NCBI GenBank assembly: GCA_946405625.1
Contig: CAMJHQ010000023.1
Span: forward strand, 1-52,949
Length of the DNA stretch: 52,949 bases
Direction: 5' to 3'
DNA from: an uncultured Lachnospiraceae bacterium
Lineage (GTDB): Bacteria; Bacillota; Clostridia; Lachnospirales; Lachnospiraceae
A program made the position numbers and the translations under genes. The notes under the pieces were generated by a model. It was not told the origin of the DNA. It did not search any database and saw only the letters and a list, made by a program, of their open reading frames with translations. How positions within the stretch are numbered: position 1 is the first letter of the stretch; each line of letters starts with the position of its first letter. Below are positions 45,577-47,094 of this stretch, piece by piece.

Positions 45577-45594
45577 TATTCCATCCTTTTAAAT

Positions 45595-45611
45595 ACCGAC
45601 AGATTGTCGGT
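45595..45611. promoter_or_regulatory. TetR-type operator before the MFS gene
   Basis: ACCGACA-GAT-TGTCGGT, a perfect 7-3-7 palindrome just upstream of the MFS start. The same half-sites appear upstream of the tetR gene. Confidence 0.75.
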
Positions 45612-45675
45612 CATGATTTAAAATATATGAGGTCCCTAAGACCTCACATACAAAATATTTATTTAATCAATTCAG

Positions 45676-46302
45676 TTACTTTAATATTATATTCATGATA
45701 GTTTTAGCAAGACTGTTTTCCTTTGCACCGAGAAGACGTTCAGTATGATAAATAAAAGCTTTTGTCTTCCTCTCTTTTTCTTCGGGAGACAGTTCAAGCA
45801 GATCATCAAATGCACTGCTTGAATAGATCATTATCATTTCAGCAGCATCAAGAGGATATTTAGTATTAAATATCTTCTCCTTATTCCCCTCTTCTATAAG
45901 CTCAGCTATAAGAGGAACAACACCCGAAAGCAGTCCTTCCTGCATTTTCTGATGAAGAAGAGCATTCTGAGGTTTATGCATCTGCTCAAGAACTTCAGCA
46001 CCAACACCGTTGTTGATATTGAGCACAAGCATCGATCCTGTAAGTCTTTCAAATATTGGAATAGTTTTATCTTTGATTATTGCTCGTGCACGAGCGATAC
46101 TATCATTCATCATCCTTTCAACTATCGCATCCAGTATCTCTTCTTTAGACTTAAAATGATGATATAACGTACCTCTAGCTATACCTATTTTCTTGATAAT
46201 GTCATTTGTACTTGCATTATCAAACCCCTTCTCAGCGAACAGTTGTTCCGCAACATCAAGGATTTCGCCCTTTCTTTCATCAGCTGATTTAACAATTCTC
46301 AT
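45676..46302 (-). CDS. TetR family transcriptional regulator
   Basis: 208 residues. The N-terminal TetR helix-turn-helix is clear (about 10-56: 'ILDVAEQLFAEKGFDNASTN', 'IARGTLYHHFKSKEEILD'). The helical C-terminal domain would bind an unknown ligand. Two palindromic operator sites lie in its promoter region and one before the MFS gene downstream, so it very likely represses itself and the export operon until the inducer appears. A gap of 99 bases separates it from the MFS gene. Confidence 0.94.
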   Translation of the reverse strand: MRIVKSADERKGEILDVAEQLFAEKGFDNASTNDIIKKIGIARGTLYHHFKSKEEILDAIVERMMNDSIARARAIIKDKTIPIFERLTGSMLVLNINNGVGAEVLEQMHKPQNALLHQKMQEGLLSGVVPLIAELIEEGNKEKIFNTKYPLDAAEMIMIYSSSAFDDLLELSPEEKERKTKAFIYHTERLLGAKENSLAKTIMNIILK

Positions 46303-46333
46303 GATATTTACCTTTCAAATTTAAGCCGGCTCA

Positions 46334-46350
46334 ACCGACAGGTTGTCGGT
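46334..46350. promoter_or_regulatory. TetR-type operator before tetR (perfect copy)
   Basis: ACCGACA-GGT-TGTCGGT, 32 bases upstream of the tetR start, identical in half-sites to the site before the MFS gene. Confidence 0.75.
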
Positions 46351-46370
46351 TAAGATAAATATATCATCAT

Positions 46371-46387
46371 ACCGACAGGTTGTCAAT
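46371..46387. promoter_or_regulatory. Second, degenerate TetR-type operator before tetR
   Basis: ACCGACA-GGT-TGTCAAT: the left half is perfect and the right half loses two outer bases. Its centre is 37 bases from the first site. Confidence 0.6.
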
Positions 46388-46417
46388 CCCTATTTTCCGC
46401 TACTCCATGAAAAATGG

Positions 46418-46528
46418 TAGCGGGGAATCCCACCGACGGCTCGGCCGCCTTTCAGGCCGGGCTTCGACCCGAACAGTACACCGTACTGTTCTCTCGGTGC
46501 AAGCACCGAGGTCTCGCCGTTCGATTCC
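46418..46528 (-). repeat. 111-bp structured repeat, copy A, near the ssrA 3' end
   Basis: Differs from copy B at only two positions. Its ends are the inverted GGGAATC / GATTCC of a tRNA-like T-arm, and it contains strong internal hairpins (CTCGGTGC/GCACCGAG, GAACAGTAC/GTACTGTTC, and a GGCC-rich stem). The left edge carries TAGCGGGGAATC, a slightly damaged copy of the tmRNA 3' terminus. Its translations in all frames are low-complexity Arg/Ser/Thr stretches, so it is non-coding. Confidence 0.85.
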
Positions 46529-46544
46529 TCGATGTATAATCCAC

Positions 46545-46590
46545 GAAAAAAGGATGGGAGAAACATAAAAGTTTCTACCATCCTTTTTTC
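46545..46590 (-). terminator. Hairpin terminator between the two 111-bp repeats
   Basis: GAAAAAAGGATGG...CCATCCTTTTTTC stem with an inner GAAAC/GTTTC stem. On the minus strand it directly follows the copy of the tmRNA 3' terminus at the end of repeat B. Confidence 0.8.
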
Positions 46591-46596
46591 ATGGAG

Positions 46597-46707
46597 TAGC
46601 GGGGAATCCCACCGGCGGCTCGGCCGCCTTTCAGGCCGGGCTTCGACTCGAACAGTACACCGTACTGTTCTCTCGGTGCAAGCACCGAGGTCTCGCCGTT
46701 CGATTCC
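46597..46707 (-). repeat. 111-bp structured repeat, copy B, near the ssrA 3' end
   Basis: Begins TAGCGGGGAATCC (part of ATGGAGTAGCGGGGAATC, identical to the tmRNA 3' end) and ends GTTCGATTCC. Same hairpins as copy A; 109 of 111 positions identical; start-to-start spacing 179 bases. It lies between the true ssrA terminator and a second terminator. Confidence 0.85.
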
Positions 46708-46722
46708 CTTTATACCAAAAAA

Positions 46723-46749
46723 AACGGAAGGGAAAAACTCCCTTCCGTT
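46723..46749 (-). terminator. ssrA terminator
   Basis: AACGGAAGGGA-(5)-TCCCTTCCGTT stem flanked by A- and T-runs, starting a few bases after the tmRNA 3' end. Confidence 0.85.
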
Positions 46750-46754
46750 TTTTA

Positions 46755-47094
46755 TGGAGTAGCGGGGAATCGAACCCCGGTCCAAAGACCCATCCATTAC
46801 GGTATCTCCCATCACAGGCAGTCAATTAACATTCCCTACGTCATACGCCGTCTGCCAGGCTTATGATTTCAGTAGCTTCATGATTCTTCCCTGCCCTCAA
46901 AGCTTTGGGAGGAAGTGCTCCGACTCTTCGATGCCCGTATCACATGCATCGGATGACACGTGGCGGACAGCTGCCATTAGGCAGCGAGTGCTACTCTATC
47001 GTTAGCGTTTATTTTTTTTAAAGGTTTTTACGAGGTCCCTCACCTCGGATGGCTGCCCTAATTTCCAAATCCCTGTCGAAACCAGTACTACCCC
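46755..47094 (-). ncRNA. ssrA: Transfer-messenger RNA (tmRNA)
   Basis: About 340 bases on the minus strand. The 5' end GGGGTAG pairs with the 3' CTACTCC to form the alanine-type acceptor stem, and the T-arm GGGGTTCGATTCCCC is intact. 'GGTTTCGACAGGG' follows the 5' end as in other tmRNAs. The CCA is not encoded. The resume codon GCT lies at 47006-47004, and the tag reads ANDRVALAA before a TAA at 46979-46977, ending in the usual hydrophobic LAA. With SmpB, encoded nearby, it frees stalled ribosomes and tags the nascent chain for proteolysis. Confidence 0.93.

What the first reader, a model, noticed from the sequence alone, without database searches (positions are those of the whole stretch)
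46390..46775. Two 98%-identical 111-bp structured elements stacked at the tmRNA 3' end, each recreating the tmRNA 3' terminus and a terminator
On the minus strand ssrA ends ...GATTCCCCGCTACTCCA, then a terminator. That is followed by a 111-bp multi-hairpin element (copy B) ending in the same GATTCCCCGCTACTCCAT, a second terminator, copy A ending GATTCCCCGCTAC, and a third hairpin (about 46394-46426). The element has T-arm half-sites at both ends (GGAATC...GATTCC) and no ORF. Seen: sequence identity, hairpins, repeated 3' end. Known: tmRNA 3' ends are integration sites for genetic elements that duplicate the att site. Inference: a tiny non-coding element that targets or copies T-arm sequences, or tandem tmRNA-tail-derived small RNAs, each with its own terminator.
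Basis: partly seen in the sequence, partly recalled or inferred. Interest (0 to 1): 0.75.

Follow-up and report, generated by a model that had tools for sequence, protein, structure and literature searches.

The report
Hairpin element copying its tRNA target
Behind the tmRNA gene sit two copies of a tiny non-coding, apparently mobile element that, in many related gut bacteria, lies right behind tRNA and tmRNA genes and carries at both of its ends a copy of the end of whichever gene it sits behind, which no mobile element known to us does.

Summary
In detail: two 112-nt copies, 98% identical, follow ssrA and rebuild its 3' end. They belong to a large family without Rfam, phage or plasmid match. 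A core pattern finds 66 contigs of mostly ruminant-gut Lachnospiraceae; 71 of 80 elements lie just downstream, same strand, of tmRNA or one of 13 tRNA kinds. The right end repeats nt 57 onward of that very tRNA (15.8/17 own match, 10.1/17 for other tRNA types); the left end is an inverted copy of it (603, permutation maximum 406). One genome has seven copies, five at five identified genes, each wearing its own target's sequence. The core is a covarying multi-hairpin almost without G.U pairs, as if folded or copied as DNA. No reverse transcriptase, Y1 transposase or neighbouring gene goes with it consistently. Best reading: a non-autonomous mobile hairpin with target-copied ends, perhaps made by hairpin-primed template switching at the terminator; the enzyme is unknown. 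The small-RNA reading is not supported. Relatives behind rpsI and fabG show that tRNA is not the only target; at rpsI the copy does not match the present gene end, which speaks against local copying there.

The parts
46755..47094 (-). tmRNA (ssrA), the target gene; T-loop G53-C56 = 46775-46772, nt 57 to 3' end = 46771-46755
   Evidence: ARAGORN, Rfam RF00023, sequence
46717..46754 (-). terminator-like hairpin 1; its stem continues towards an inverted acceptor (arms 46706-46733 / 46739-46766)
   Evidence: inverted repeat I4, 82% complementary
46698..46708 (-). left arm of copy B: GGGAATCGAAC, inverted copy of tmRNA nt 53-63
   Evidence: family-wide test
46609..46698 (-). core of copy B (P2, HP1, HP2, HP3)
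   Evidence: CM R1 84.9 bits, E 2.1e-18; helices by covariation
46592..46608 (-). right arm of copy B: GATTCCCCGCTACTCCA, direct copy of tmRNA nt 57 to 3' end
   Evidence: family-wide test
46546..46590 (-). terminator-like hairpin 2; larger arms 46537-46564 / 46571-46598 reach into the acceptor copy
   Evidence: inverted repeat I1, 89% complementary
46519..46528 (-). left arm of copy A: GGAATCGAAC (inverted T-loop/T-stem)
46430..46519 (-). core of copy A
   Evidence: CM R1 79.4 bits
46417..46429 (-). right arm of copy A: GATTCCCCGCTAC (truncated tmRNA 3' end)
46397..46407 (-). distal inverted remnant of the tmRNA 3' end (TGGAGTAGCGG) closing the array
   Evidence: inverted repeats I2 and I3

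Best explanation
The two repeats are members of a new family of about 110-nt, non-coding, non-autonomous mobile DNA elements of Lachnospiraceae and relatives. SHOWN: a covarying multi-hairpin core sits immediately 3' of a gene, nearly always a tRNA or tmRNA, on the same strand; its right end is a direct copy, and its left end an inverted copy, of the 3' part (from nt 57) of that same tRNA; similar cores stand behind different tRNA genes of one genome; copies form tandem arrays of the unit [nt 57-76, terminator, inverted 76-57, core]. The tRNA stays intact. No dedicated enzyme was found; host replication/repair or an unlinked enzyme would act in trans.
For: (1) Linkage: of 80 elements, 71 have a tRNA/tmRNA upstream on the same strand within 520 nt; a core-only model, with tRNA-derived ends left out, gave 24 matches (E up to 0.001) in 12 of 397 family genomes, own included: 21 behind a tRNA/tmRNA, 2 at contig ends, 1 (L110) without (the window's two). 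(2) Target-derived ends: right tail 15.8/17 own against 10.1/17 other-type tRNAs, own strictly best in 64 of 70; acceptor strand 66-72 identical in 53 of 70, and where it differs the gene's own copy pairs better with the tRNA 5' end in 13 of 17, equally in 3, worse in 1; inverted left arm summed score 603 against a maximum of 406 in 302 permutations; T-loop variants are copied (Leu-CAG GTTCAACTCC, Leu-AAG GTTCAAGTCC, G350 tmRNA GTTCGACTCC, Lys GTTCGAGCCC). (4) Full, truncated and empty versions at one tmRNA-next-gene locus in different species of the genus: L050 full, L144 and L137 truncated, L136, L141, L145, L151 empty. (5) Truncated distal copies run into what looks like the native terminator side: L040, L061, L093. 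(6) Core structure: 22 of 36 pairs change on both sides, 238 such cells against 77 shuffled, 93.4% paired. (7) Present in five isolates, incl. a single-contig genome (AC2029, JNLK01000001.1), so not a MAG artefact.
Against: No enzyme identified and no insertion seen to happen; the copying steps are read from end products. Behind rpsI the element's copies of the gene end (CAGTTCTCAAAGAGAT) match the rpsI ends of relatives (all 8 read) and not the present gene end of the window's genome or of G058, which use AGT for the same serine: there the present end, not the distal copy, looks new, as after an island-type insertion. The own tRNA is strictly the best match of the inverted arm in only 30 of 70, since many arms are lost beyond the T-stem. 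Terminators on the two sides match in some loci (L035, L066, L073) but look unrelated in others (window, L007, L008). Nine elements have no called tRNA: L039, L052, L059, L065, L080, L097, L106 lie within 300 nt of a contig end (L052 behind a cut tmRNA); L047 and L095 have room (L047: a tRNA-Ser 3' fragment upstream; L095: a tRNA-like sequence); L080 and L110 are unexplained. The tree rests on 92 columns with many open forks; the seven G353 cores do not form one clade, sit in a supported group of 16 with nine other cores, and the AU test of one clade gives p 0.255. In one search the number of further pair types (52) does not exceed shuffles (53.5). Divergent relatives with other ends exist (G502 Met; rpsI; fabG), so 'nt 57' is a rule of the main class only.
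Confidence: 0.72

Rival explanations
1. The element is a single-strand DNA transposon substrate (MITE/REP-like) moved in trans by a HUH/Y1 or other hairpin-reading nuclease that cuts the T-arm hairpin in its loop between nt 56 and 57; the target-derived arms arise during repair of the cut end, which the core caps as a hairpin.
For: Hairpins with DNA-like pairing; a constant tetranucleotide GTTC in the target and GAAC at the core's left end; right junction at nt 56|57.
Against: Y1_Tnp is absent from 7 of the 19 genomes searched, all seven carriers: G353 with 7 copies, G314, G502, G264, G350, G368, G599; no gene family recurs beside copies at different tRNAs apart from a few general ones. Other nuclease families were not searched.
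Confidence: 0.25
2. The units are mini-cassettes or att scars of tyrosine integrases that use gene 3' ends (tRNA T-loop) as attB and supply the new gene end.
For: Recreated tRNA 3' ends are the hallmark of such islands (Islander, PMC4383910, abstract start seen); Phage_integrase is in all 14 genomes searched; behind rpsI the present gene end differs from the distal copy as if supplied with the insertion; in L047 a tRNA-Ser tail fragment follows unrelated sequence as an att site would.
Against: In one genome five identified targets each keep their own tRNA's half although the cores are alike; the inverted left copy has no place in integrase recombination; the unit has no gene, and G353 has one integrase hit, on another contig than its copies.
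Confidence: 0.12
3. RNA-mediated: a transcript ending in the terminator primes itself, a reverse transcriptase copies the tRNA 3' end and switches to a core RNA (a bacterial SINE-like element).
For: The duplication ends about at the terminator T-run in L035, L066 and L073, as a transcript end would; tandem G.A pairs of HP1 favour the sense strand (52 G.A against 1 C.T cells in HP1); six carriers searched do have an RVT_1 gene (G000, G002, G057, G314, G214, G502).
Against: No RVT_1 in carriers G353 (7 copies), G215, G291, G050; G.U pairs nearly absent. The enzyme may have been lost, or lie outside RVT_1 or outside the assembly (G353 is about 90% complete).
Confidence: 0.12
4. A functional small RNA or processing/termination element of tRNA operons, duplicated with its gene and not mobile.
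For: Conservation and covariation of the core; sense to the gene in the main class.
Against: Patchy presence: 24 of 61 same-genus genomes have a match at E up to 1e-6; element-free loci with the same next gene; same core behind unrelated tRNAs; pairs keep Watson-Crick almost without G.U.
Confidence: 0.1

Closest known systems
REP/BIME/REPIN repeats with RAYT (TnpA-REP) transposases
   Same: short non-coding palindromic DNA outside genes, judged mobile, acting through folded single strands
   Different: at most 7 copies seen in a genome instead of high copy number; ends follow the target rather than being fixed; site beside tRNA genes; no Y1 transposase in seven carriers. Papers PMC3116915, PMC2817692, PMC8266576, PMC3733652: search listing with start of abstract only
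tRNA/tmRNA-integrated genomic islands (tyrosine integrases)
   Same: tRNA stays intact and a copy of its 3' end lies on the far side
   Different: no gene, about 110 nt, inverted copy at the near end, similar cores in one genome fit different tRNAs. PMC4383910 and PMC1762012 (T-loop attB of phage Ms6): search listing with start of abstract only
Casposons / Cas1-type integration
   Same: recalled: insertion at tRNA 3' ends with duplication of target sequence
   Different: no gene in the element, repeated stretch of very variable length, inverted arm. PMC4046053, PMC6614799, PMC6977970: search listing with start of abstract only
Group IIC introns
   Same: recalled: insertion behind terminator hairpins
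   Different: no intron match in Rfam scans of the window or of 11 loci, no RVT_1 in four carriers
Quasipalindrome template-switch mutations
   Same: hairpin arms made perfect by copying the other arm; few mismatches or wobble pairs
   Different: a conserved 90-nt core is carried along and spreads to new genes (recalled concept; only review listings seen)

Membership tests
REP/REPIN-RAYT | high copy number in the genome | tested here: not met
   2 good copies in the window's genome; at most 7 in any of 397 family genomes searched with the core model, strict filters
REP/REPIN-RAYT | Y1/RAYT transposase in the genome | tested here: not met
   no Y1_Tnp at E up to 1e-4 in 7 of 19 genomes searched, all seven being carriers
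REP/REPIN-RAYT | fixed terminal sequence (GTAG-type tag, recalled) | tested here: not met
   both ends follow the target tRNA; no search for the tag itself was run
tyrosine-integrase island | tRNA intact, displaced copy of its 3' end at the far end | tested here: met
tyrosine-integrase island | integrase gene inside the element | tested here: not met
   element of about 110 nt; no recurrent neighbour gene across tRNA types
tyrosine-integrase island | gene half supplied by the element, fixed per element | tested here: inconclusive
   not met in the tRNA class: in G353 five similar cores carry five different tRNA/tmRNA halves; but at rpsI the present gene end looks supplied
casposon | cas1 gene and its own DNA polymerase | not tested
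   no room for a gene inside the element; Cas1 in trans was not searched
group II intron | intron domains and RT | tested here: not met
   no Rfam intron match; no RVT_1 in carriers G353, G215, G291, G050
trans-acting or cis RNA family (Rfam) | match to a curated model | tested here: not met
trans-acting or cis RNA family (Rfam) | RNA expressed as a distinct transcript | not testable with these tools
   no RNA-seq available
integron attC cassette | attC core boxes and IntI integrase | not tested
   considered only from memory

The most novel reading that the evidence does not exclude
A class of transposase-free 'copying hairpins': a conserved folding core that spreads by hairpin-primed template switching wherever a gene ends in a terminator, each time building its own terminal stem from a direct and an inverted copy of the host gene's 3' end, so that the gene is never broken and the element fits any tRNA.
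Probability: 0.33. Interest if true: 0.92.

Novelty: categorically new. Interest (0 to 1): 0.8.

Why it matters
Mobile elements normally carry their own ends and leave a short target duplication. Here the ends belong to the target, in both orientations, which lets one small core sit behind many different tRNA genes without harming them and makes a tRNA-gene parasite possible with no coding capacity. If the copying route is right, these loci are a natural record of template switching at terminators. It also explains unannotated repeats behind tRNA, tmRNA, rpsI and fabG genes of rumen bacteria.

Tried and rejected
Phage and plasmid collections: no phage match; 5 plasmid matches over 12% of the query, annotated as malate dehydrogenase, taken as chance. 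Viral contigs: 0 matches to the core pattern. Rfam at loose threshold: besides tmRNA only matches below the families' gathering scores, mostly miRNA and sRNA models, taken as chance. Alternative local hairpin GYCG/CGGC instead of long-range P2: fits the pairing (97.5%) but has no double change, while P2 pair 18-66 is G-C in 24 and A-U in 16 of 40 rows with no miss; both may form. Strand by folding energy: inconclusive (sense lower in 54 of 65, mean z -3.64 sense, -3.95 antisense). RT, integrase and Y1 as linked partners: not consistent in the 14 to 19 genomes searched. Neighbour genes: the largest shared ORF clusters are syntenic genes of one tRNA locus. Simple deletion of right halves cannot be told from early end of copying, since the tRNA-proximal side is protected. 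Weak order-level matches without a tRNA (G623, G123, G551, G187, G169, G680; L173 at class level) are taken as chance. Rows left out: three pattern hits (L052, L059, L080) had no recognisable left end and were not in the element set; 64 distinct cores remained, 59 went into alignment A1 (5 short ones left out); the covariation alignment A2 holds 37 of these plus 3 later ones, i.e. the main class only. L087 was dropped from the end tests because its T-loop lacks GTTC, and the T-loop of L060 was misplaced by the script but kept. Literature: eight searches listed nothing describing such an element; no paper was opened, and the library lacks most subscription papers.

Full report
OBSERVATION. On the minus strand tmRNA (46755-47094) is followed by a terminator-like hairpin, copy B (core 46609-46698), a second such hairpin, copy A (core 46430-46519) and a short inverted remnant. 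The copies are 112 nt, 98% identical. Copy B folds better than 200 of 200 shuffles on either strand. On the minus strand the gene order is an RNB-domain gene, smpB, a small ORF without Pfam match, ssrA, the elements, a TetR-family gene, an MFS transporter.

THE UNIT ELSEWHERE. A BLAST search of 195 genomes found a match at E up to 1e-6 in 24 of the 61 same-genus genomes (own included, counted from the list; the genus size is that) and in no other genus at that level; some of these matches are partial. A pattern of the conserved part found 66 contigs among GTDB species genomes, titled Lachnospiraceae, Eubacterium, Acetatifactor, Blautia, Clostridiales, Eubacteriales or Bacillota, mostly MAGs from ruminants by their titles, and none among viral contigs. 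A core-only covariance model (R1: 59 sequences, tRNA-derived ends left out) hit 12 of 397 family genomes (own included) with 24 matches at E up to 0.001: 21 have a tRNA/tmRNA upstream on the same strand, 2 lie at contig ends, 1 (L110) has none (the window's two). In 295 genomes of the order, 16 had a match at E up to 0.01; strong new ones are in another family (f22): G599 behind Leu-CAG, G173 behind Leu-CAA, Leu-TAG and Leu-CAG, G164 behind tmRNA, and G638 with no tRNA called. Weaker matches (E 0.0009 to 0.008) were partly beside tRNAs (Leu-AAG in G659, G629, G395, in the opposite sense; Lys in G558) and partly chance. In 391 genomes of the class, two further weak matches: one beside tRNA-Ser-GGA in the opposite sense (L174), one without a tRNA.

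WHERE IT SITS. Of 80 elements (69 on the 66 contigs, the window's two and 9 extra model hits; tandem copies counted apart; L039 and L044, from one genome, may be one locus cut by contig ends), 71 have tmRNA or a tRNA upstream on the same strand within 520 nt; targets among the 70 with a readable T-loop were tmRNA 27, Ser-CGA 14, Arg-CCG 7, Ser-TGA 7, Glu-CTC 6 and one each of Trp-CCA, Ser-GCT, Gly-CCC, Ala-CGC, Leu-AAG, Leu-CAG, Leu-CAA, Val-GAC, Lys-CTT. Of the nine others, L039, L052, L059, L065, L080, L097 and L106 lie within 300 nt of a contig end, L052 behind a cut tmRNA; L047 has a lone tRNA-Ser 3' end fragment upstream, and L097 a GAATCCCTCCGTCTGCG copy after similar upstream sequence, as if an island had slipped between (inference); L095 follows a tRNA-like sequence that ARAGORN does not call; L080 stays unexplained.

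ENDS COPIED FROM THE TARGET. The right end is nt 57 onward of the neighbouring tRNA: 15.8 of 17 letters match on average, against 10.1 for other tRNA types, own strictly best in 64 of 70. Exact direct repeats run from 0 to 161 nt; 15 of 70 are 45 nt or longer and so take in what follows the tRNA, usually its terminator. The acceptor strand 66-72 is identical in 53 of 70; of the 17 that differ, the gene's own strand pairs better with the tRNA 5' end in 13, equally in 3, worse in 1. The left end is the reverse complement of nt 53 onward: 603 summed score against at most 406 in 302 permutations; own strictly best in 30 of 70, because many arms have decayed past the T-stem. Odd T-loops are copied too: Leu-CAG GTTCAACTCC, Leu-AAG GTTCAAGTCC, tmRNA variants GTTCAATTCC and GTTCGACTCC. 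Some loci form one long hairpin of tRNA 3' end, (terminator) and inverted tRNA 3' end (e.g. L098, L103, L024). A rough test found an inverted tRNA end (score 11 or more) in 55 of 68 loci with the core motif and 13 of 55 without; the 13 include full copies the motif missed (L006, L120) and truncated ones (e.g. L026, L029, L130, L137).

MOVEMENT. On a tree of 68 cores (92 columns, 26 of 65 inner branches open) they cluster (3 changes against 6.8 shuffled, 0 of 500) inside a supported group of 16 rows that also holds nine cores of other genomes; an AU test of one clade gives p 0.255; on that tree the tRNA-type label changes at least 22 times, a figure that poor resolution may inflate. At the tmRNA locus followed by a gene with the same start, different species of the genus have a full element (NE2001, L050), truncated ones (G005, G032) or none (G055, G059, G007, G053). 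Truncated distal copies end at different core positions and continue in what looks like the native terminator side (L040, L061, L093).

STRUCTURE. In 40 full elements of the main class a structure of P1 (the tRNA-derived ends), P2, HP1, HP2 (loop GGTG/AGTG) and HP3 has 93.4% of cells paired, 22 of 36 pairs with double changes and 238 such cells against 77 after shuffling; sliding partners by one column drops pairing to 37-46%; the number of further pair types (52) does not exceed shuffles (53.5); HP1 is paired in only 78.9% because half the rows have tandem G.A there. The alignment is MAFFT's, not fitted to the structure, but the structure was drawn with these sequences in view. RNA helices usually drift through G.U (established knowledge), so this points to folding or copying at the DNA level. 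HP1 shows 52 G.A cells against 1 C.T, which favours the sense strand as the folded one, though related rows share it.

AGENT. In 14 genomes RVT_1 is absent from G353, G215, G291, G050, G005 and G022 (the first four carriers, G005 with a truncated copy) and present in eight, six of them carriers. Y1_Tnp is absent from 7 of 19 genomes, all carriers, and present in 12. Phage_integrase is in all 14 searched, but G353 has one hit, on another contig than its seven copies. The largest ORF clusters near elements are syntenic genes of one tRNA locus; a few small clusters span tRNA types.

MECHANISM. The net insert is [57-76, terminator, 76'-57', GAAC, core, GG] between nt 56 and 57 or, read otherwise, [inverted arm, core, direct arm, terminator] inside the terminator. 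Snap-back at the terminator gives the inverted arm; the shared GAAC gives a hop to the core; priming by the core's folded 3' end on the new inverted arm gives a direct arm that starts exactly at nt 57; repetition gives arrays with nearly identical terminators (L051, L061, L066, L156/L170); return at the native T-run gives full or truncated ends. This route is inference; a nuclease-made break capped by the core would leave the same product.

WIDER KIN, AND A RESULT AGAINST. In the window's own genome two divergent relatives follow rpsI (S9), each ending in a copy of an rpsI 3' end. Of 61 genus genomes 29 match this stretch at E up to 0.001; by my count of the listed places 19 (own included) match the hairpin part and 10 match only the rpsI end itself. 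Places looked at include tRNA-Leu-AAG (L189, L190, L193), tRNA-Pro-CGG (L183, L184, L196), rpsI (L180, L181) and the spot directly after the fabG stop codon, where ATGAGCTGTTAA returns behind the core, with small changes in three of four (L185, L186, L192, L194; fabG named by model for two). The copies at rpsI read CAGTTCTCAAAGAGAT, as do the gene ends of relatives (8 of 8 read), while the present gene ends of the window's genome and of G058 use AGT for that serine. There the gene end next to the element, not the distal copy, seems to be the newcomer; this fits an island-like supply and not local copying, and is the best argument for the integrase-type rival.

VERDICT. A real, wide, unannotated family of apparently mobile non-coding elements whose ends, in the tRNA class, match their target; the mode of spread is proposed, not shown.

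Noticed in passing
G000:C1 160699-161059 (L175:900-1260): Two divergent relatives behind rpsI in the window's own genome, each ending in a copy of an rpsI 3' end that matches relatives' rpsI rather than the present gene.
   Followed up: partly
L185, L186, L192, L194: Related hairpin directly after the fabG stop codon, with the gene end ATGAGCTGTTAA (small changes in three) again behind it.
   Followed up: partly
L182/L208, L183, L184, L188, L196: Related hairpins with pieces that resemble the T-arm and anticodon arm of tRNA-Pro; tRNA-Pro(CGG) is called in L183, L184, L196; L182/L208 repeat at 195 bp.
   Followed up: no
L020, L024, L027: A second multi-hairpin sequence of roughly 110 nt sits inside the element at the conserved GGCCTGA^AAGG loop, i.e. 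an element within an element.
   Followed up: no
L013, L017, L021 (tRNA-Arg CCG): Another multi-hairpin block with many GCTTCGC/GCTCCGC loops stands beside the element at tRNA-Arg.
   Followed up: no
window 45593-45619, 46332-46358, 46369-46395: Three near-palindromic ACCGACAGRTTGTC sites around the TetR-family gene 45676-46302, possibly its operators; two lie just beyond the distal end of copy A.
   Followed up: no
L047 and L097: A copy of the tRNA-Ser(CGA) 3' end precedes the element after similar unrelated sequence, as if an integrated island had separated tRNA and element.
   Followed up: partly
L119 (G502): A 162-bp unit repeated behind tRNA-Met, in which the T-arm 5' strand looks like a direct rather than inverted copy.
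   Followed up: no
L068, L069: Tandem repeats of about 63 bp follow the element at tRNA-Ser(CGA).
   Followed up: no
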